Notes under the pieces: generated by a model
Database searches by the model: none
What the model was told of the DNA's origin: nothing
What the model saw: the letters and a program-made list of their open reading frames with translations, nothing else
In this document: piece by piece, positions 4,064 through 31,446 of the stretch
Layout: the number at the start of each line of letters is the position of its first letter
How positions within the stretch are numbered: the first letter of the stretch is position 1
Program-made: the position numbers and the translations under genes
Origin: Inonotus obliquus
Lineage: Eukaryota > Basidiomycota > Agaricomycetes > Hymenochaetales > Hymenochaetaceae
DNA: 64,000 bases
Direction: 5' to 3'
Assembly: GCA_032164295.1 (NCBI GenBank)
Contig: JAJHTX010000006.1
Location: 372,001 to 436,000, forward strand

Positions 4064-5462
4064 TCACGAACTCGTTACGATAATCTTCGGACCAGCGGAT
4101 TGCTGCGGAGTCGCAGTCCCAGAGGATGATCGTGTAGGAGGAGGTCTCGACATCATCGCACCACCATTCCTCCGACCTCCTTCCACTTCCTCGTCACTCT
4201 CGCTATCCCCAATCCCGAACAACTCCTCCCTCTCATCCCATACATCTCCCAACCTAATTCTATTATTGTTTTTGCTCTGCTGAGGCGGAGCGGATGAATT
4301 GTTGTTGTTCGTGGTGGTACGACGCGAGTAATGCGTAGGAAGTAACATCGTCCCGAAATCGTCTTCGTCTTCGGAACTTAAGGGGCTGGTATAGTAATCC
4401 TCTGTCGCTGTGTTGTCGAGGGCAACGGGTCGGTATAGGCGTGCGATCTGGAAAGAGAGTGGACGACGAGTTTTAGTGATTGGTAGATGTGTGGGATAAA
4501 GAACTGTGAAGTAGATAGTAAGGATGTACCTCTCGTCGATGTCGGTAATATTTCTCCAGGTAATAAGCTATCCAGAGGCCGAGTGCTGAGCCTATGAGGT
4601 TTGCCTGTACATGATGAAACTGGTTAGCGCCGTTCGTAACTTCACAATTCGAAGTACAGGTTTGTAGAGGGGTCAAAGGCAAGGAACGGGAAGAAACATA
4701 AACAAAACCATGAACCAGTATTACTCACTGCAACATCACCGATATCAAATTCCTTGTACTTTCAAAGGTAAGGTAAGCGGGAATGAAACCCAGCAAGCCA
4801 ACAACAAATAACATACGGGCAATAAAGACTGTACGATCTCGCTGACGATTCCTCCGAGGAAGAAACATATCACGGCGGTTAGGATGAGAGGGGAGTGTCT
4901 CCAGATCCATATTCGTCGAGCATCCCTGCGGTTATAGTCTACTTTCAGTATTTAGCTCGTGCAACGATATTGGACTCTGGCGCTCTTCCCACTTAACCGA
5001 GCTACAAGCCTAGCCTGGTGGAGTGGAAAGAACGCCAAAGTCCAATATACATCACGACGGTTACAGTAAATCATTTCACTCACTCTTCGACGTCGAAGAT
5101 GAAATAGAACACTGTCGTTGCGAGACATAAGCATACAAGATGAAGGATCTTGTCGTTAAGTGGTAACGAATGCGCGAAATTGGTGAAGCCGAGGAAGGCC
5201 AGTATGAGCATTACGATGGACGTGAACAGCACAAACCACTATAAGTTCATTCATATCCACCTCTTTAGATTCATGATCATGTTTAGAAGAAGTGAAGGCA
5301 ACTCACTGGTCGAACACGCAATGGTAATTCATAGCTGGGAAGCTTGAATCTATACGACTTCATCACAGCCTTGAACAGACGTCTCCAAGACCTCTTGGAT
5401 CGCTTTCCAGATACTCTATCATCTCTATTTCTAGCAGTTGTTGGCGATGATAGACCGAGCAT
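4064..5462 (-). CDS. VanZ-like domain membrane protein
   Basis: Six exons read from an ATG at 5462 to TGA at 4064. A basic N-terminus (RSKRSWRRLFK) precedes helix 1 (WFVLFTSIVMLILAFLGF). Then come NDKILHLVCLCLATTVFYFI, a loop, ILTAVICFFLGGIVSEIVQ, and LLPYKEFDIGDVAANLIGSA. The patterns DK-LH, E--Q and FD-GD--AN--G are the conserved core of VanZ-like proteins, which in fungi are small multi-helix membrane proteins of unknown function. The C-terminal third is a polar tail with acidic stretches (SSEDEDDFG) and Asn/Ser runs. Intron 2 (4926-5083, 158 nt) is about twice the length of its neighbours because it contains a long hairpin (separate entry). Confidence 0.8.
4967..5048 (-). repeat. 82-nt intronic hairpin (27-bp inverted repeat)
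   Basis: The arms are 4967-4993 and 5022-5048 (27 nt each) around a 28-nt loop. They match at 24 of 27 positions. All three differences are C in the left arm against T in the reverse complement of the right arm. On the minus strand, which is the sense strand of the host gene, these become G-U wobbles, so the transcribed RNA can pair along all 27 positions; on the plus strand they would be C-A mismatches. The loop holds a further short inverted pair (GCTA/TAGC). It lies wholly inside intron 2 of the VanZ-like gene. It could be a miRNA-like precursor, a small foldback element or a structural intron element; the sequence does not decide. Confidence 0.75.
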
Positions 5463-21875: not shown

Positions 21876-24800
21876 TCACCGTCGACCAGTAACGGTCAGT
21901 TTTTGGGCACCTTTGCCCTTTACCGCTTTAGCAGCTTGCGACAAAGAAAGGTACGCATATGGTTCCAGACCGCCCTTTTTGACATCACCACCAGCTCGCT
22001 GGAAAAAAAAGGTATCTCAGATATCGACGTATTAGTCATATCGGGTTTCGTAAACCGTACCTTTGCCTTGAACTCTTGACCAATCTTGACGGGTTTCCGA
22101 CGTTTCGCCTTGCGCTTGTCGTTTTCTGCTGACTTTTCAATGTCCATCATCTCGACGTCTTCATTTTCAACCCCTTCCTCAGCCTCTCTCCTCCTCTTTT
22201 TCGTATCTTTATTGAACTTGACACGCCCGCGATGATCACGAGTGAAGCCGTCAACAGAAGTGAGAGTCTCGCGGTACGCTTCACCAGCAAGGCGAGCGTC
22301 TTCGTCCGGCTCGGCATCGCCCTCCGACTCGGATTCGATAAGCATTTTGCCAGTGCTTGAGTCGGTTTTGAATTTGGAGGCTTCTGCTCCGGGCTTGCGG
22401 GCCTGCTTCCGTGCACCTGTGTCGACATGTTCAGAGAACAAATTGATGGACTAGTAGAATTAATTTACCACTCATGACGCCAGTATTGGCTCCCTGTAGA
22501 AGGTCCATAGGCTCGTCATCATCGACGCGTAAACGAGCTCCCTTATCAAGACGGGCCTTTCCGTCTTTCTGTCGCTGCGAGCTTGGGCGTGCCCCCCCAT
22601 CGCTAGCTTCACTTTCAGTCTCGCTACCATATAGGACATCTTCAAACGCATCGTCTCCCGCGGCACGCGCTGGAGCAGCATCTTCATCATCGCTTTCACC
22701 CTCTTCAGTTGTAGCACGCTGAGCTGCCTTCCTGCGCTTCGCACGATCCTTGCGCTTCTTGATATTTGAGAGTACCTTCGCAGCTTCCTCGTCCTTGTCT
22801 GCTCCTCCAGCGGAATATACTGTTTCATATCCGACCCGCCTTATAAGTCGTTCGAAAATATGCCGTACTTTATCTTTGAAATGATTCTTGTGATCGTGCG
22901 ACCAACGAAGAAGCACTGGTACGAGTAGGTCAAGGTGCGGACGCAGGAGATCCAGGGGTTGAGTGTGAATGAAGAGCTTCACAAAACCTAGAGCTGACTT
23001 GACGATCTCACGGTTCGCAGATTTGAGGTACTCAATGAAAGTCAGGAAGATCTCCTTCTGCATCTCTTGAGAGACCTCGTCTGCATTAAAGGTTAGACAG
23101 CACCGAAGACCCGAGCAACTGTACTAGACATACCCTTGAATTCAAATATCAAACGCGAGATGGCAGTGATTGTAGCACTAATCATATGCGAACTCGCACC
23201 AGCTAGACCGCCGGCCATCATAGTGAAATATTCATCCAGATTCGCTGGTGCTAAGACATTTTCCGGTTAGCAAATATTGATATATGGAACACCATTTTCT
23301 CTCACTTTCAGTCATATCGTCCTCGTCCATGCCATTAAGCTTAGAACGCTTGACGATTCCACCCTCTTTCATCTTGCGTCCCATGGCAACGATTAGCTCG
23401 AAAGCCGCTAACCGAGCCTTTTCAGAAGGTTCCTTGGTTCCGAGGACTGCTTCAGGAATGAGAGAAGGAATTACGTGCAGTGCATCGGATGGAAGACTTG
23501 GAAGAAGGACTTTGAAGAAGGTAAGACGGTCCTGAAATTTGGTCCTATGTTAGCAGACGACGTCAGAACAGGTATCTAATCCACCTTCTTTGCCGCAGAT
23601 AAGGTATCTTCCGCTACTTCATCCATCTTTGCGTAAAGACTCTCCGCGTTGACATCGACCTTTTCGGCGAGCAGTACCCTGCTCAATATTTTGTACGCTC
23701 GTTTCTGTACACCATTGTCCTGAACTTTTAATACATCCGGTGTGAGACAAAGATCAAAGACCGCTCGTGCGTCGGTGCGGGAAAGGTAAGGCACGAGAAG
23801 GACAAGAATGTCCTGCATCGAAGAGACGACGGCGCGGTTCTTCTCGTTTTCGTTGGTCTTCGCATTCGCAGTTGTACTAGCGGAAAGTCTTGCTAGATTG
23901 GTCTTGAACATGTCGACGACCTTTCGGCAAGTCTTGTGCATTTCCTATAATAATTGCTCAGTTAATACCACATCATTGAAAAATGGAGTTCTGTGAGAAA
24001 AAGAACCTTCTCATCTGCTATAGCAGCCCAAGCACTAATCACATCGCCAACCATACCTTGCTCATTGTTCCCGACGGTACCGAAGACGTTGAAGAGCACC
24101 GCGAACCAGCTTTCCGCCTGACTTCTGAGGATCGCGAGATTCTGAGCGGCTTCTTCCGCAAGTAGCGCTTCGGGATCATCAGCACCTTCTGAAGAATTAG
24201 TATTGCTCTCAACAACGACTCTGAGAGCCTTGAGAACAGGGAGACGAAGCTCTGGTTGGCTATACAACAATTGAGATAGCATTTGAGCAAATTGCGGGGT
24301 CAAGGACTGGATTCCGTATTAATTATTTCAACAACAGGCACGGGACCGACGAAGAGCTAACTCACCTCCCGCAGATCAGGTGTTCGGTAACAGTACGCAG
24401 GAAGACCGTTCCAAACTTGTGAGACAAGTACACTCCACACCTTCGCCTCAGACGCGCGGCCCTCCACTTCAGCACGCTGCTGGAGATCAAACATGCGTTC
24501 CGTGAGCGGGACGAAATATGATATGAAATGGCGCAAGGGAGACGGATGGAGCTCCACCAGGAGCGGAAGAAGGAATGCTCGCGGTTCACGGCCTGCAGCA
24601 CGATCCTCCGGTTCAAGATTCAGCGGAAGTGCGGCGAGGAGAGCTTCGGGACCGATAACGGACATTGCTGTACGAAGAACCGCATCAGCAGCCTCCTTGT
24701 ACTCGAATCCTTTCTTCACACGCATGCCACCTATCTTCTGCAGCAATGGCACAAGTAAGCGCTCCGCCGCGGTCGCTGAACCCCGTCCTTCAGGGCGATA

Positions 24801-26054
24801 CCGAAGTGCGGATACAATTGAGGACACAACCGACAGAATCTCGGGAGTCGCACGAACGTAGGCAATCGAATCAAGTGATTTGCTTAACTGCAAGATGATC
24901 TGGGAAAGTGCGGCCTTGCCATTTCCGATAGACGCGTTAATGAATGCGGCTGTCATGCACTGCGTAATTCGTGAAAGAGCCGCCGCCGTCTGGAGACGGG
25001 TAGTAGAGTCGGAGGATTCAAGGTACGGAAAGATGGCCTTCCATACGCGCGGAACTTCCGGTGTACAAGCGTCTGAATCGGAGGAGGCATATCGGACCAT
25101 AACTTGGCCCACAACCTGTACCCATGACGGCAGAAGAGCGACGTCCGTTTTTAAGGGCGGCGAATCAAGTATAGCATGCAAGAGTTCCGAGGTTGACTTA
25201 TCTACGTTTCGTGGCATGGCGGGGTTATCGGGAATGGAGAGTAGGTCGGATAGGACTCCGTAAGACGATTGCGATAGGTAAGGATTGCCAAGTCGCGGCA
25301 AATTGAGGAGGGAGGTTGTAATCGCAGGTAACGATGATGGTGGGAGGTGCGGTAAGATAGGGTGTATGAATGCAAGAAGATGAATGGCGGCGTTCACAAC
25401 CTCATCTACGTTCGCAGTCTTCTTGCCCTTCTGTTTCATCAAGTTTATTTCCGAGAGCGCACTTATGCTCCATTCTCCTACTCGCTCTGAGAAAGGATGG
25501 CGTAGTAAAGGACTCGGGGGAGAAGCAAGGACATCTCTCACGGTATCCGCCGCTCGTTTCCTCACTTTCGGTCGAGGATCGAGGCAAAGCTGCAGAATAG
25601 TCGCGAAAGACTGTCGGACAGGCTGTGTTTCGAGTTGTGCTCGATCTAAAGCGCGCAAGACAGAGCTATACAGTGATAGTTGGGATCGTAACGGGGGCGC
25701 GCTTGGTTGTAACGGTATCCACAGTGGAGAGGTAAGAGATATCAAGGTGCTCAGATTCGTGCGGATTATAGGAGCGGGAACAAATGGGCCAACGAGGGCG
25801 AGGAGGTAGAGTTCAGCGGGGAGCAAGTCTCCGTCTCCAAGAAGAAATTTAGTCTCCTTCTCTTTCTGTACTGTACTTTCAAGAGCCGTTAGTAAACCAG
25901 CAAAGTAAGCCGCTGGTGTGCACGGGGTGTTTTGTTCCTTGAACGTTTCCTCGAGAGCTGTCAGTAATTTGGCTGGAGCCTTCTGGTGAGCGAGGGAGGA
26001 CGAGATATGAGGTCTGATCTTAGAAAGAGAGTTTTCCAAGTCCTCGGGCGGCAT
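21876..26054 (-). CDS. RRP12: RRP12-like ribosome biogenesis/export protein
   Basis: Eight or more exons encode about 1,250 residues of HEAT-like helices. The start MPPEDLENSLSKIRPHISSSLAHQK matches the usual RRP12 start. The frame stays open upstream to about 26138, but without another ATG. Central blocks (DPRPKVRKRAADTVRDVL, LNLPRLGNPYLSQSSYGVL) are typical NUC173-domain features. The C-terminal third is charged and disordered, and the end, GGDVKKGGLEPYAYLSLSQA, is a well-conserved RRP12 tail. RRP12 acts in processing and nuclear export of both ribosomal subunits. The mobile-element-like insertion ends only about 114 bp upstream of the start codon, so the native promoter may have been displaced. 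Confidence 0.92.
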
Positions 26055-26167
26055 TCTTGTCTTTTCGAGCCTTTCGTTGCTCCGATTTTTGTCTGCCAAT
26101 GTCGGTGAGGACGCGGAGGAATGGACTTGTGTCTTCACCCACCAAATTTTGAGTTTGCTGATGGCAC

Positions 26168-26490
26168 CACGGCGGGCAAAATAGGATATCAGCGGGGATT
26201 GTATTTTAAATATTTTTCGAGCATTTATTTTAAGTATCAGTAAGCATGCCGGCTGAGCTGATATTTAAAGTATCTTTCACGTGATGCAGTTTTAAATATC
26301 GATAAGGATATCGGTCTAAGGTTATTTAAAATATCGGTCGGATTATAATATGTAAATCAATATTTTAAATATTGCTTTACTGATATTTTAAATATAGGTC
26401 AAGATATCAAATTTGCCGAAATTTCAAATATAGATAAGGATATCGTCAAAGTCAATATTCTAAATATCATTCGAAGACATATTGAGCGGG
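26168..26490 (+). repeat. Left terminal inverted repeat with AT palindromes
   Basis: The outer 17 bp match the right end exactly. Inside, about nine imperfect palindromes of the type GATATTTTAAATATC occur near 26201, 26226, 26260, 26288, 26321, 26360, 26381, 26418 and 26453, spaced 21-39 bp, interspersed with GGATATC and AGATATC. The repeat ends at the start of the GC-rich tandem array. Confidence 0.8.
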
Positions 26491-26601
26491 CGACCAGCGG
26501 GCAATAAGCGGGCAATGGGCGGGCAATGAGAGGGTGATGGGAGGGTGATGGGAGGGCGATGAGCAGGCAACGGGCGGGCAACGAGAGGGCGATGAGAGGG
26601 C
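26486..26601 (+). repeat. Left 11-bp tandem array (about 10 units)
   Basis: Units are variants of G(C/A)GGGC(A/G)A(T/C)(G/A)(G/A), for example GCGGGCAATGG and GAGGGTGATGG. The period is 11 bp throughout. The same units appear inverted in the right array. Confidence 0.85.
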
Positions 26602-27656
26602 TACAGGCGGTGTAGAGAACTACGTGCGGCTGAGCTCGGTATCGACCCCGGTATCCCATTCTACACTTACCCCATGCTACGGTAAAGAGTAATACCGAAG
26701 GCTACAATCGATATGGGCTTAATTCTGCGATTCTACCGCTTCTTCCAATTAACAATACTTCTGTGATTCTACCGCTTCTTACTTCTCTTCGGTCCACGGT
26801 ACTTCTGCCGTCCTATCTACGCCTGCGGTTCCAACAAAGTACGAGGCTTCTGCGATTCGACAAGGCTGAGAACGATTGAGAACTGGTCCTACATACGTTT
26901 AGCCAGACTTCTGCGCCAATACCAAATCACCAATCCCTACGCCCGTCTTCCATCACAGTACCGAACCACCAGACTTCGATACCGATGATACCGATACCGT
27001 ACCGTCTGTTTATCTCCGTGGAGGGTTCGTTGATTCTTGATCGACGGACCAATCTGGCTAATTCCTCGGTTTGAGGGGTTAATCCAAATTCTACAATACT
27101 GGTTATGGAATTGCTAATCACCTTAGTGGACTGTGTAGCTGATCCGATCTGAAACAACTAGCAACTAACTAATATTGCAGTTGACCCTGATACTATAATC
27201 GTACAGTATTAAGTCGGCGTGAAGACGCGATTGTTATACTGATTGTTATTCACGATAAGGGAATATCGGGAATCGCACTACGTTGTGAGTAGCTTGTACC
27301 GTGCAGACAATAGGGAGAACAATCTAGTTGCAATCCGTATTTTTAGCTTCACTTCGATTTCACACAATCGGTTCAGTTCAGCCGTGTCGCTACTGGTAAT
27401 TTACTGGCTCGCAAGTAATTGATGTTACGATTTAACTTAGGGACTTATGGTAGGGTCCCTTGACTTGGATTAAACTGCTAGGTCGGCTCTACGATGGCCT
27501 CCTTATATACTAATTTACATGTGTGACGTTACTACCTTGTTACTTACTGTTTATGGTATTTATCTGTTTCTTCCTCTATGATACCTGGTCCGTGCTTTCT
27601 CTTTACTTCCTTCCTCATTTCACTACCTCTGTGTTACTAGCCTCTCTTTGATCAGT
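26602..27656. other. Element interior, left non-coding part
   Basis: About 1 kb with no convincing gene. It contains repeated GATACCG / CGGTATC hexamers (clusters at 26636-26655 and 26975-27005) and three runs of TTCT(G/A)CGATTCTACCGCTTCTT-like short repeats at 26725-26790. A minus-strand open frame of 76 codons (26927-27157) has no recognised motif. Confidence 0.4.
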
Positions 27657-28427
27657 TTAGTGTAGTGGGCGGTACCATCTTGTAGATAGGTTTGATCCTT
27701 GTGTAGGTAACGGCACTTGATCTAGTTCAGCTATTCTAGGTAATTGCTGAGTCATCTGTCCTTGTATTTCGGGTCTCGTTGGTATCGGTGGGATCGGTCG
27801 TGGTACAGTCAGCCAGTTTCGAATAGTTTGCACTCGTGTATATCCTGGCGTTGTCCTAGCGCGTTGTAGGGTTATCCCTTGTACTCCTTGTAGGTGTATT
27901 ACTCCGCCGTACTGTTCTACCTTTATTTCCATTATGGTATATCCATAAGGTAATCCTCGACTTATGTAATTCATTATCCAATGCCCCCAAGCATATGCAG
28001 TTCTCTCATTCGTTCCGGCTTGGTCTCGCTTGTAGGCAATGTCGACGTCTACTATAGCTGCGTCGCATCGTTCGTGTCTTCCTTCCTGTGCTACGTTTCG
28101 TATTCCAATCATCATTACAAAGTATCCGGCGTCGTAGGATAATACTCGTATCTCCCTTTCATAAGCCTTTTGCATTTGTTGGTTAGGGTCGTAGGTTAGT
28201 TCTACAAATCGACGTCGTATCATTATGTCGGCTTGTCCGTTCATTATGTCTCCGTAAGTGATCTCTCTGATTAATTCTCGCATTAGTCCTCCAGCTAGTT
28301 CTTTAGCTGGGCGGCACGTGTTGCAACATCGTAGTATATTGCTTCGCGGTGTCGGGGGAACGATGGGCTGTTCTAGTACTTGTATTACTGCCGCTAACCG
28401 TTCTTGTATCCAACGTAGGACGCTCAT
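27657..28427 (-). CDS. Element ORF A, unknown protein
   Basis: 256 codons from the first in-frame ATG at 28427; the frame is open to 28478 but upstream codons lack an ATG. The protein reads MSVLRWIQERLAAVIQVLEQ, then a Cys pair (CCNTCRPAKELAGGL). A predicted mixed alpha/beta core follows, with YFVMMIGIRNVAQEG, CDAAIVDVDIAYKRDQ and AYAWGHWIMNYISRGL, and a Pro-rich tail (VPRPIPPIPTRPEIQG). No known domain was recognised. It is weakly similar in order to ORF B of the same element: a Cys-x2-Cys region, a hydrophobic strand ending GI, a C---V-(V/I)---Y block and an aromatic helix. Possibly a DNA-binding or capsid-like product; this is speculation. Confidence 0.55.
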   Translation of the reverse strand: MSVLRWIQERLAAVIQVLEQPIVPPTPRSNILRCCNTCRPAKELAGGLMRELIREITYGDIMNGQADIMIRRRFVELTYDPNQQMQKAYEREIRVLSYDAGYFVMMIGIRNVAQEGRHERCDAAIVDVDIAYKRDQAGTNERTAYAWGHWIMNYISRGLPYGYTIMEIKVEQYGGVIHLQGVQGITLQRARTTPGYTRVQTIRNWLTVPRPIPPIPTRPEIQGQMTQQLPRIAELDQVPLPTQGSNLSTRWYRPLH

Positions 28428-29925
28428 AGTTATTGGCTTATTAATGATGGATAATACTACCTTTCTAACACCGTCCACCCATCCTGATACCGATGCTTAA
28501 TAGTCCACGTCTAGTCGATACTACGCCCTCGACAGCCCATACCAGAGGGAAAGGCTCACAAAGCTGCGATCGGTATGCCATATGTTGCTGCGAAGAGTTG
28601 GATCATGGTCGAAGCTCCAAGTCCGATGGTATGCCCTTCTGAACTGCCATCCATCGATACCGACGATACCGGTGTTGATACCGATGGTCCGCTCTGGTAC
28701 CGGAGTTCGTAACGTGTGCTAGGTCGAGACCACGCCCTCGGAGATCTACGTCGAGAGGAAGGTTGGGAAATGAATCAAGTCTGCCGTACGCTGCTTCGAT
28801 CTCGGAGGAGGCCATCGATCCGACTCGGAGGGGAAGCCAAGCAATGCCCAGTCGAGTCAGGCAACGCGTACCAATTGATATCGAGGGGCTCGAGCAATCT
28901 CATTGATGCCCAGGGACGATCCCAGGGTACTGATTGGTACCGAGCAATAGAGTACTCCATTGCCAAGGTTAGGTTGTACCGACATGTCAACATTGGAGCA
29001 TGCCGTCCGATCGATCGGTAGACGCCCAGACTGACGCCGCACGGATCATGATACCAGAACAAAGGTAAATCAGGATGACGTGCTTCTCCTGCTAAGGAGA
29101 TGACAGGGACATCGCCAGGAGCGCCCATGCGGTAGCTTGAGACACGTCCTTATTTTAGCGCTGGTTGACGTCGGTACCGCCGCCCTACCTCGGTGTTAGA
29201 AAACGCTCGCCCTAAAGGGACTATACAGTAACCACAATAGGACGGTCCGATAGTGTTACGGGTTCAGCGATGCTTTTCTAAGAGTTTCCGGAGCCTACTC
29301 GGTTTTCACAAGCAGGGCAGATTCCCAAGTATACTAAGCGTTGCCTCAGACGCTCTCGTTTACTAATCAAGTCGGGCCTCAACCTCGTTGACAGACTAGT
29401 AGGACAGTATCGACTGCCGTTCGTAAGCTTCCCTAGTCGGTGGGCGACTAATTAATCGTTCCACGCCGTAGAGTAAGAGAGGTTAAGCAGATTAGGTGGT
29501 CTTCAGATTAGAAGCTAGATGCCTAAGAGGACTCGATGTACAAGACGATCGAAAGAAAGATAGGGAGCTATGGTCTAAGTCTACAACTATTTATACCTTT
29601 TCCTCATGTTGTGGACGGACCACTTCCTACGCTCCATAGTTCCTACTCTCGATCTGATTCGTTATTCTAGCTTCCAAACTTGTCTGGTATTCCCATTGTT
29701 CTGCTGCGGATTGACTCATCGACTGTGCCCTGTGCAAGGCGATGACTCGGCGTTGACTCATCTTGACTTGAACTGAATTGAAACCTATGCTTGGGGTCGG
29801 CCTTGTGCTGCGCCCTGTGCATAGAGTGAGTCAGTGAGTGAGTCATTGAATGCGTGTTCGTATGCCATTGGTTTTGCATGGCTGCGCCGTAGTTAGAGTT
29901 CGCTCGTCCGCAGTTGCTCGTGTAT
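28428..29925. other. Element interior, middle non-coding part
   Basis: 1.5 kb between the two ORFs. It has more GATACCG motifs (28487-28495, 28647-28690) and GGTACCG (28937, 29171). Overlapping minus-strand open frames at 28603-29128 have no recognised motif. GAGTGAGTCA-like direct repeats occur at 29823-29845. No RNA gene is seen. Confidence 0.4.
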
Positions 29926-30702
29926 TTAAGGAATTCCGTCGGGGTTCCGTTGTATAGCATCTGGGGCTATGAAGGCTGTGATTTGCTTGTCGCCTCGGGA
30001 CTCTTGTTCGGGGCCGTCAAGTGTGATTCGACATCGGATATCATCGTGGGGAAACCAAGGTGGTTTGACATAGGTGCCTATGGCAATGAGTAGCCGTACA
30101 CTTCGTCGAGTATCGCTCGAAGGTATTCTCCAGCCTAGGTATAGGTCTCCTTGTAGTCGAATAGCTTTGCAGTATGCCCATAGTTCCCTGAGTGTGTTTG
30201 CAACCCATGCCGCTGTTATCGGTGAGCGGCGGTTTGTAACATAGTCTGCACTGATCTCCACGAATGTGCTTGGGCACTCGAGTGCTAATATATCATGGAT
30301 TCCTACTATCGTCCAGTGCGTCTTTGGTTGCATGCCTATTGCCGTATCCATTGCTATTGTTGACCTCGTGCGATTTCGAACAACCTCCGGGGGATTGTGG
30401 TATTCTCGATAAGCTGTTGCTCGTTCGCTGGACACATGATACGTTAACATGCCCGTTGCCTCCCATAGTATTATCTTGTGTAGGTCTTCGATGATCTGTC
30501 GCACTCTTCTGCATTTATAGCAAGCCGTTGGAGGCTGCTGTATTTGCTGCATTGTTTGCGAAGGTTTAGTGTGATCGTCGGGATTAGCGTTGCTAGCCGA
30601 TGCTTCTTGATCGTCGGCTTCGGATTGTATTAGATTCGCGTGTTCTCCGCTTCTCGCTGTCGATCCTGATCGTAGCCGGCCAGTGAAATTAACCGGTCCC
30701 AT
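29926..30702 (-). CDS. Element ORF B, unknown protein
   Basis: 258 codons from an ATG at 30702 (MGPVNFTGRLRSGSTARSGE). A polar, disordered N-terminus (QSEADDQEASASNANPDD) leads to TACYKCRRVRQIIEDLHKII with a Cys-x2-Cys pair. A folded-looking core contains HWTIVGIHDILALECPSTFV, ISADYVTNRRSPITAAWVAN, TLRELWAYCKAIRLQGDLYL and RLLIAIGTYV. The end is DGPEQESRGDKQITAFIAPD. No known domain is recognised and no DDE or other catalytic signature is obvious. Same strand as ORF A, with a probable distant common origin. Confidence 0.6.
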   Translation of the reverse strand: MGPVNFTGRLRSGSTARSGEHANLIQSEADDQEASASNANPDDHTKPSQTMQQIQQPPTACYKCRRVRQIIEDLHKIILWEATGMLTYHVSSERATAYREYHNPPEVVRNRTRSTIAMDTAIGMQPKTHWTIVGIHDILALECPSTFVEISADYVTNRRSPITAAWVANTLRELWAYCKAIRLQGDLYLGWRIPSSDTRRSVRLLIAIGTYVKPPWFPHDDIRCRITLDGPEQESRGDKQITAFIAPDAIQRNPDGIP

Positions 30703-30810
30703 CCGGGGTAGTTTCGATCGACGTTCCTAATCGAATCAAAATTTCAGCACAATCCTTTCAAGTTGTGCCTTCTACCACGACTCGCTGCGTCCATAGACGT
30801 CACTCCTGCA

Positions 30811-31003
30811 CCCACTTGTCGCCCACCTGTCGCCCACCTATCGCCTGCTCGTTGCCCTCTCGTTGCCTGCCAGTTGCCCTCTCATCGCCCTCTCATCGCC
30901 TGCCAGTCACCCACCCATCGCCTGTCCATCGCCCTCTCGTCACCTGCTTGTTGCCCTCTTGTTGCCCGCCCGTTGCCTGCCCGTTGCCCGTTCATCGCCC
31001 GCT
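30811..31003 (-). repeat. Right 11-bp tandem array (about 18 units)
   Basis: The reverse complement reads as consecutive 11-mers of the left-array type (GCGGGCGATGA, ACGGGCAACGG, GCAGGCAACGG, GAGGGCGATGA and others). About 18 units, so it is longer than the left array, and in mirror orientation to it. Confidence 0.85.
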
Positions 31004-31321
31004 TAATATCTACCCGAACAATACTTATAATATCCGGTCTGACGATACCCTTATTGATTCTTAAAATATCACCCAAGTAGATATCTTGATTGATATTTAA
31101 AATATATGCCAAATTGATATCTTAAATATCGATAAAAATATCAGTAAGAGGATTTTTTAAATATCTCGCAGATGGGGATATCCATATTTATATTTAAAAT
31201 ATCGACACGTGAAATATATTATAAGTATCGACGCAGCCGGGACGCTTATCGATATTTAAAATATCGGCAAAAAAATAATTTAAAATAGCTCCCCCTCCGA
31301 TTTTCTATTTTGCCCGCCGTG
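30996..31321 (-). repeat. Right terminal inverted repeat with AT palindromes
   Basis: The inverted counterpart of the left end, diverged but colinear. Palindromes of the GATATTTTAAATATC type recur through 31070-31265. The outer 17 bp are identical to the left end. Confidence 0.8.
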
Positions 31322-31446
31322 CACGTGCTTGGGTAATACAATCACGGGACTCAATGTCGGCGGATGTGCCAAGAGCATAGCCGTTTGTAGCGCCGCCAGC
31401 ACGGCAAGAGGCAAGAGGAGCTCAATGTTATTCTGGGACCACGACT

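What the first reader, a model, noticed from the sequence alone, without database searches (positions are those of the whole stretch)
26168..31321. A 5.15-kb element with mirrored composite ends and no recognisable transposase
The ends carry identical 17-bp tips (CACGGCGGGCAAAATAG), then about 325 bp of diverged inverted repeat filled with AT palindromes, then mirrored arrays of 11-bp GC-rich repeats. Inside are only two unknown ORFs, both on the minus strand. This three-layer end structure does not match the Tc1/mariner, hAT, MULE, CACTA, Helitron, KDZ or Plavaka elements that I know. It could be a new DNA transposon group or a non-autonomous derivative whose partner is elsewhere in the genome.
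Basis: partly seen in the sequence, partly recalled or inferred. Interest (0 to 1): 0.88.

Follow-up and report, generated by a model that had tools for sequence, protein, structure and literature searches.

The report
Jumping DNA stuffed with retrotransposon genes
The stretch is one copy of a cut-and-paste DNA transposon family with no engine of its own found, and its two mystery genes belong to other jumping elements that landed inside it: retrotransposon end repeats, normally non-coding, that here carry a gene apparently kept working by natural selection.

Summary
The anatomy is real. The copy (26168-31321) has identical 17-bp tips, inverted ends 72% alike, 11-bp arrays and a CAC target duplication. 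I compared 24 copies including this one (1.3-24.5 kb); 16 of the 18 with both tips have perfect 3-bp duplications. A MITE with the same tips has 33 near-full rows. CAC..GTG termini with 3-bp TSDs are the published EnSpm/CACTA signature, so it is not a new terminal type; no transposase was found in the fetched copies. ORF A and ORF B are not its genes: each lies in an LTR of a chromodomain Ty3 retrotransposon. The surprise is those LTRs. Both ORFs start 44-59 bp inside U3, just after the polypurine tract, in gag-pol sense, and show purifying selection (12 of 14 tested pairs, P<0.05). A related LTR keeps ORF A at 43-48% identity; another LTR type has a different ORF. ORF B has 147 scored places, 115 without stops. 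An alignment search found 8 ORF A homologs elsewhere. LTRs are ordinarily non-coding; MMTV sag is the nearest architectural precedent. My searches of an open-licence library found no such report for fungal Ty3 elements.

The parts
26165..26167 (.). left target site duplication CAC
26168..26482 (+). left terminus: 17-bp tip CACGGCGGGCAAAATAG, then AT-rich palindrome-filled inverted repeat (about 72% like the right end)
26483..26601 (+). left array of 11-bp units, consensus TGAGCGGGCAA, same orientation as the tip core GCGGGCAA
26611..27006 (.). third nested repeat (R3, apparently TG..CA ends, LTR-like), first part
   Evidence: outer end read by eye against L054
27007..28470 (-). solo LTR-A of a Ty3 chromovirus, 1464 bp, TG..CA, 5-bp TSD CCGTC (27002-27006 / 28471-28475)
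27657..28427 (-). ORF A (256 aa from ATG), starts 44 bp inside the LTR (U3), CxxC; purifying selection
28471..29193 (.). R3, second part, cut off by LTR-B
29194..30760 (-). solo LTR-B of another Ty3 chromovirus, 1567 bp (the paired copies in C6_17.3k are about 1677 bp), no TSD
29926..30702 (-). ORF B (258 aa), starts 59 bp inside the LTR (U3), CxxC; purifying selection
30761..30810 (+). remnant of the type-2 interior next to the right array
   Evidence: 4594-5138 of the element matches C3_4.8k at 94.5%
30811..30999 (-). right array of 11-bp units (17-unit run), mirrored
31000..31321 (-). right terminus: AT-rich inverted repeat and 17-bp tip
31322..31324 (.). right target site duplication CAC

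Best explanation
26168-31321 is a non-autonomous EnSpm/CACTA-like cut-and-paste transposon copy. Shown: tips, inverted ends, arrays, 3-bp TSDs, a multicopy family, and nested LTRs. Inferred: a CMCT-type transposase, made elsewhere now or in the recent past, bound the tip and the 11-bp arrays (about one helical turn apart, sharing the tip core GCGGGCAA) and moved the unit in trans. After insertion the interior was overwritten by three retrotransposon pieces: solo LTR-A by LTR-LTR recombination (its TSD is kept), and LTR-B joined to R3 without a TSD, which points to recombination between two insertions with loss of the original type-2 interior. Both ORFs are LTR genes. Each starts 44-59 bp inside U3, directly after the polypurine tract, in gag-pol sense, so the 3' LTR copy would be expressed as the last gene of the retrotransposon (inferred, by analogy with MMTV sag). 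Selection has kept the proteins intact, so they probably help the retrotransposon; which step they serve is not known. My guess is a nucleic-acid- or host-factor-binding accessory protein (CxxC helix followed by an alpha/beta domain, weakly modelled).
For: Family and mobility: 51 rows with each end probe, some being pieces or opposite ends of one copy; 278 tip matches at <=2 mismatches against 14 for the reversed control; perfect TSDs in 16 of 18 copies with both tips, against 0, 0, 1 and 0 of 24 at shifted positions; 33 MITE rows 92-100% identical, and a MITE inside a MITE whose query segments overlap by 3 bp. LTR origin: identical ORF A copies flank a 1521-aa pol and identical ORF B copies flank a 1700-aa pol, in direct repeats of 1457 bp (99.9%) and 1679 bp (100%); both pols have RT, RNase H, integrase and chromodomain; polypurine tracts next to the LTR start. 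Selection. Conservation.
Against: No transposase was found in the fetched copies; PF02992 gave no hit, though nothing rang in its controls either. Two of 18 copies lack a perfect 3-bp TSD. Two of 14 ORF pairs show no clear selection: L014/L026 P 0.34 and L036/L014 P 0.056. In LTR-A the ORF is not more conserved than the rest of the LTR in 2 of 3 comparisons (0.023 v 0.012, 0.033 v 0.017, 0.010 v 0.018); in LTR-B it is, in 4 of 4. No RNA or protein evidence for the LTR genes. Structure models are weak (pLDDT 59 and 38).
Confidence: 0.87

Rival explanations
1. A new DNA transposon superfamily whose own proteins are ORF A and ORF B (a strong form of the reader's reading).
For: Neither ORF has a credible Pfam or NCBIfam match and both lie inside the element.
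Against: ORF A and ORF B sit in LTR pairs around Ty3 pol genes and give 125 and 147 rows genome-wide; whether each row lies outside such elements was not checked. The short family members C10_2.4k and C12_3.1k carry neither.
Confidence: 0.03
2. A non-autonomous derivative of a Plavaka or KDZ element, which this genome does contain.
For: 17 Plavaka and 11 KDZ rows in the genome; Plavaka is in the same CMCT clade (PMC12730594, passages).
Against: PlavakaB termini are CATCA..TGATG, PlavakaA TGT..ACA with 2-bp TSDs, Zisupton TSDs 8 bp; here CACGG..CCGTG with 3 bp. No tip with <=3 mismatches in 10 fetched loci, which cover only 4 of 17 Plavaka and 4 of 11 KDZ rows, mostly with 1.5-kb flanks.
Confidence: 0.12
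3. ORF A and ORF B are chance open frames in young LTRs, not genes.
For: LTRs are ordinarily non-coding (PMC4667437, passages); many copies are young, so open frames could be simply undecayed; LTR-A outside the ORF is as conserved as the ORF.
Against: Nonsynonymous changes are below a context-matched null at P<0.02 in 11 of 14 tested pairs and at P<0.05 in 12; relatives 43-48% identical keep the frame; 8 homologs elsewhere at 34-52% identity.
Confidence: 0.05

Closest known systems
EnSpm/CACTA DNA transposons (CMCT clade)
   Same: CAC..GTG termini and 3-bp TSDs (PMC12730594, passages); subterminal repeats (general knowledge of En/Spm, recalled)
   Different: No transposase found; very regular 11-bp arrays; about 315 bp of AT-rich palindromes between tip and array
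Pack-TYPE / Pack-CACTA elements (recalled)
   Same: Type-2 relatives carry cyclin-like (Cyclin_N E 1.4e-31) and ubiquitin-like gene pieces between the shared ends
   Different: Outside rows that overlap type-2 DNA the best cyclin match is only 34%, so no donor gene was identified; the window copy itself has lost this interior
Ty3/gypsy chromoviruses
   Same: RT, RNase H, integrase, chromodomain in both; gag with CCHC and a protease seen for the LTR-A element; TG..CA LTRs, 5-bp TSDs, polypurine tract
   Different: Their roughly 1.45-1.68-kb LTRs hold a protein gene under selection at the start of U3
Mouse mammary tumour virus sag
   Same: An accessory gene lying mostly in the U3 region of the LTR (PMC4667437, passages)
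   Different: An animal retrovirus gene; no relation of sequence was tested. The likeness is one of architecture only

Membership tests
EnSpm/CACTA (CMCT) | termini 5'-CAC..GTG-3' | tested here: met
   18 of 24 compared copies, window included, have both tips within 4 mismatches of CACGGCGGGCAAAATAG; some read CAT at one tip; the other 6 have a damaged or displaced tip
EnSpm/CACTA (CMCT) | 3-bp target site duplication | tested here: met
   16 of 18 copies with both tips; window CAC/CAC
EnSpm/CACTA (CMCT) | DDE transposase with C(2)C and H(3-4)H motifs | tested here: inconclusive
   none seen in fetched copies, of whose short interiors only the main ORFs were scanned; PF02992 gave 0 hits with no positive control; large tip pairs such as C5:2818233-2835774 and C6:2945076-2961353 were not read
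EnSpm/CACTA (CMCT) | subterminal repeats (feature recalled) | tested here: met
   11-bp units, 408 over 24 copies, consensus TGAGCGGGCAA; run lengths vary from 0 to 17 per end
Plavaka | termini CATCA..TGATG (B) or TGT..ACA (A) | tested here: not met
   tips are CACGG..CCGTG (definition)
Zisupton (KDZ) | 8-bp TSD | tested here: not met
   3-bp TSDs (definition)
Ty3/gypsy chromovirus (LTR-A and LTR-B elements) | RT, RNase H, integrase, chromodomain | tested here: met
   for the LTR-A2 and LTR-D types no pol was read
Ty3/gypsy chromovirus (LTR-A and LTR-B elements) | LTR TG..CA with 5-bp TSD | tested here: met
   LTR-A CCGTC in the window; LTR-A2 GCTAA; LTR-D CATTC and TAGCG; LTR-B copies with TSD in C6_17.3k, C13_12.8k, C2_10.1k read from the flanks; the window LTR-B has none
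MMTV sag-like gene | gene within U3 of the LTR | tested here: met
   ORF A 44-814 of 1464; ORF B 59-835 of 1567; the U3/R border was not mapped
MMTV sag-like gene | sequence homology to sag | not tested
   no sag sequence was fetched; no claim of membership

The most novel reading that the evidence does not exclude
Several lineages of fungal Ty3 chromoviruses carry one ancient gene family at the start of U3 in their LTRs (ORF A, A2, B, D). Every retrotransposition copies the gene twice, and every solo LTR leaves behind a single-gene fossil or mini-gene; hundreds of such places, many still open, are spread through this genome. It is a retrotransposon accessory gene, perhaps against host silencing or for RNA handling, encoded where LTRs are supposed to be non-coding.
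Probability: 0.55. Interest if true: 0.75.

Novelty: new variant of a known kind. Interest (0 to 1): 0.57.

Why it matters
The DNA transposon itself is a non-autonomous member of a known type, although its regular 11-bp arrays give a tidy, testable picture of transposase binding. The larger point is the LTR gene. A selected U3 gene shared by several fungal Ty3 lineages would be a non-animal parallel to MMTV sag and would make the question of what an LTR-borne accessory gene does testable in a simple host.

Tried and rejected

Papers: passages only of PMC12730594, PMC9674265, PMC11117352 and PMC4667437; all others seen in search listings. Searches on LTR-borne ORFs, Pack-type or CACTA elements in fungi listed no report of this; the two papers listed for (PMC10787394, PMC9603552) and the two for one search were not opened, and subscription papers are mostly missing from the library.
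Full report
OBSERVATION. The described structure is present at the stated coordinates. The tips are identical and the inverted ends align at 71-72%, far above approximate dinucleotide shuffles (138 against a mean of -48, sd 8.8, 200 shuffles). The arrays are strictly 11-bp periodic, with runs of 10 and 17 units. The element is flanked by CAC on both sides.

FAMILY. The genome that holds the window (36.07 Mb, 30 contigs, unnamed; Plavaka and KDZ genes suggest a basidiomycete, an inference) has many relatives. The left and right 353-bp ends each gave 51 rows, of which some are pieces of one copy, opposite ends or short palindrome matches. By pairing them I fetched and compared 24 copies including the window, 1.3 to 24.5 kb. 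Eighteen have both tips within 4 mismatches; 16 of these have a perfect 3-bp duplication, 14 different triplets; the two failures are C12_3.3k (ACT/TAC, a TACT match if shifted) and C13_12.8k (TGT/TAT). The six others have a damaged or displaced tip and were not counted. Shifted controls gave 0, 0, 1 and 0 of 24. The tip pattern with <=2 mismatches occurs 278 times against 14 for the reversed pattern. One MITE sits inside another with query segments that overlap by 3 bp (C6:1186262-1186869), and C7:236472-237031 shows the same for an unidentified 201-bp insert: two filled sites whose empty form is known. The high identities point to recent movement (inference).

WHAT KIND. PMC12730594 (passages read) gives CAC..GTG and 3-bp TSDs for EnSpm/CACTA, CATCA..TGATG or TGT..ACA for Plavaka, and 8-bp TSDs for Zisupton. 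The window element fits EnSpm/CACTA by ends and TSD. The array consensus TGAGCGGGCAA (408 units, 24 copies) contains GCGGGCAA, which is positions 5-12 of the tip, in the same orientation; 112 of 5000 shuffled consensus units match as well (P about 0.02). I read the arrays as tandem transposase-binding sites, about one helical turn apart (inference). The one MITE that I read in full (L055) shows no such array by eye, so arrays may not be strictly required.

INTERIORS. Two basic interiors share the same ends. Type 1 is about 2.4 kb (C10_2.4k, C10_2.5k); type 2 about 3.05 kb (C12_3.1k, C10_3.0k, C6_3.2k). Type 2 carries a cyclin-like piece (L041:1060-1638 minus, Cyclin_N E 1.4e-31; PDB cyclins A2 and B1 at about 1e-19) and a ubiquitin-like piece (PF00240 E 3.3e-05 but under the curated cut-off; in PDB polyubiquitin chains give inflated E-values, single-domain chains 0.0095 and weaker, RAD23 0.047). 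Leaving out rows that overlap type-2 DNA, the best cyclin match in the genome is 34% over nearly the whole piece (C2:916541), so the donor is unknown. No transposase was seen in either type; only nine of the main ORFs were scanned.

THE WINDOW COPY. It is a type-2-derived copy: positions 4594-5138 of its 5154 bp match C3_4.8k at 94.5%. Its interior is now nested retrotransposon material: R3 26611-27006 and 28471-29193; solo LTR-A 27007-28470 with TSD CCGTC; LTR-B 29194-30760 without TSD, joining R3 to the type-2 remnant. Little more than the ends and about 50 bp of the type-2 interior remain.

THE ORFS. In C1_15.4k two identical ORF A copies flank a 1521-aa pol; in C6_17.3k two identical ORF B copies flank a 1700-aa pol, in direct repeats of 1457 bp (99.9%) and 1679 bp (100%). 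Both pols have RT, RNase H, integrase and chromodomain. In sense orientation the polypurine tracts AGAAGGGGGAG and GGAGGGGGGCGAG precede the LTR start, and the window ORFs begin 44 and 59 bp into the LTR. So both are U3 genes in gag-pol sense (the U3/R border itself was not mapped). LTR-A2 (1615 bp, TSD GCTAA, in C13_6.1k) has a 43% identical ORF A, and L057 and L058 hold further members at 43 and 48%; at DNA level only short blocks outside the ORF align between LTR-A and A2, while tblastx aligns the ORF at 45%. LTR-D (1481 bp, TSD CATTC in C6_17.3k; 1473 bp, TSD TAGCG in C13_9.0k) carries another ORF, 289 codons stop to stop in C13_9.0k and broken to 169 in C6_17.3k. No pol was read for A2 or D.

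SELECTION. Nei-Gojobori dN/dS for ORF A close copies is about 0.11-0.34 (for example 0.013/0.065 and 0.018/0.085); two LTR pairs are uninformative (L015/L014 identical; L030/L031 two nonsynonymous and no synonymous change). L058/L057 is 0.050/0.328; A against A2 has dN about 0.5 with dS at or near saturation. For ORF B 27 of 28 pairs lie at about 0.06-0.42 and L026/L014 at 0.021/0.026. Against a null that keeps base and CpG context, 12 of 14 chosen pairs had fewer nonsynonymous changes at P<0.05; the two others were L036/L014 (0.056) and L014/L026 (0.34). The pairs are not independent. Compared with the rest of the LTR, ORF B diverges less in 4 of 4 comparisons, ORF A less in only 1 of 3, so LTR-A outside the ORF is itself well conserved.

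COPY NUMBER. ORF B: 147 matches (147 of 208 candidates scored), all over residues 1-258; 115 have no in-frame stop and 32 have one or two, nearly all TGA (hand count). ORF A: 125 rows, 62 of them 84-100% identical over nearly full length (47 without stops), most others a diverged set at about 31-56% (hand count). ORF D: 105 rows, fragments included, many with stops. Spacings of about 9.8-9.9 kb (ORF A) and 12.3-12.4 kb (ORF B; 10.2 kb in C6_17.3k) recur, as LTR pairs should.

RELATIVES. Single queries found nothing in 5.8 billion proteins. The ORF A/A2 alignment found 8 proteins, E 3.2e-75 to 2.3e-34, 34-52% identity, from contigs of at most 1,887 bp, unnamed and probably metagenomic, with shared blocks CxxC, GQxDIMIRRRF, YEREVRVLSYD, IGIRN, LDIDIPY and VEVKED. 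ORFs A, B and D may be one family: a CxxC helix and a beta-alpha-beta-beta order recur in the A and B models (the B model has pLDDT 38), and hhalign scores beat 100 (A-B) and 99 (A-D) of 100 shuffles, but formal probabilities are 6.6% and 2.5% and B-D shows nothing. I treat this as a lead.

MECHANISM. DNA element: trans-mobilised cut and paste by a CMCT-type transposase not found here (likely, 0.8). LTR gene: read from the 3' LTR copy as the last gene of the retrotransposon, like MMTV sag, which lies mostly in U3 (PMC4667437, passages, which also states that LTRs are ordinarily non-coding). The expression route and the function are inference.

NOVELTY. The transposon is a non-autonomous family of a known kind. 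The LTR gene is, as far as the searches show, not reported for fungal Ty3 elements; those searches cover an open-licence library only and specific phrasings.

Noticed in passing
window 24357-26138 (minus): The ORF next to the element is an RRP12-like gene (RRP12_HEAT E 4.9e-54); the transposon lies only about 30 bp upstream of the ORF start as listed.
   Followed up: partly
L041:1060-1638 (minus) and other type-2 copies: A cyclin A/B-like gene piece travels in many copies of this transposon family (50 rows; at least two low-identity rows look like ordinary cyclins), mostly with stops.
   Followed up: partly
L041:2677-2838, L039:2581-2766: A ubiquitin-like (perhaps RAD23-like) exon piece sits at the right side of the type-2 interior.
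   Followed up: partly
L054 (G000:C5:476639-486192): A 9.35-kb tip-flanked element (TSD CAA) holding yet another Ty3 element with a chromodomain-like C-terminus (by eye) and short LTRs, and R3: several of these transposons are filled with Ty3 insertions.
   Followed up: partly
G000:C6:1186262-1186869 and C7:236472-237031: Nested insertions into MITE copies with 3-bp overlaps: natural empty-site comparisons.
   Followed up: no
R3, window 26611-27006 and 28471-29193: A third repeat of about 1.7-1.8 kb that covers over 1 kb of the window interior and is shared with 8 other compared copies, often inverted or in pieces; no complete element that owns it was identified.
   Followed up: partly
L016:7930-8796 (minus): LTR-D carries another ORF at its start (105 rows in the genome) with only weak profile similarity to ORF A.
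   Followed up: partly
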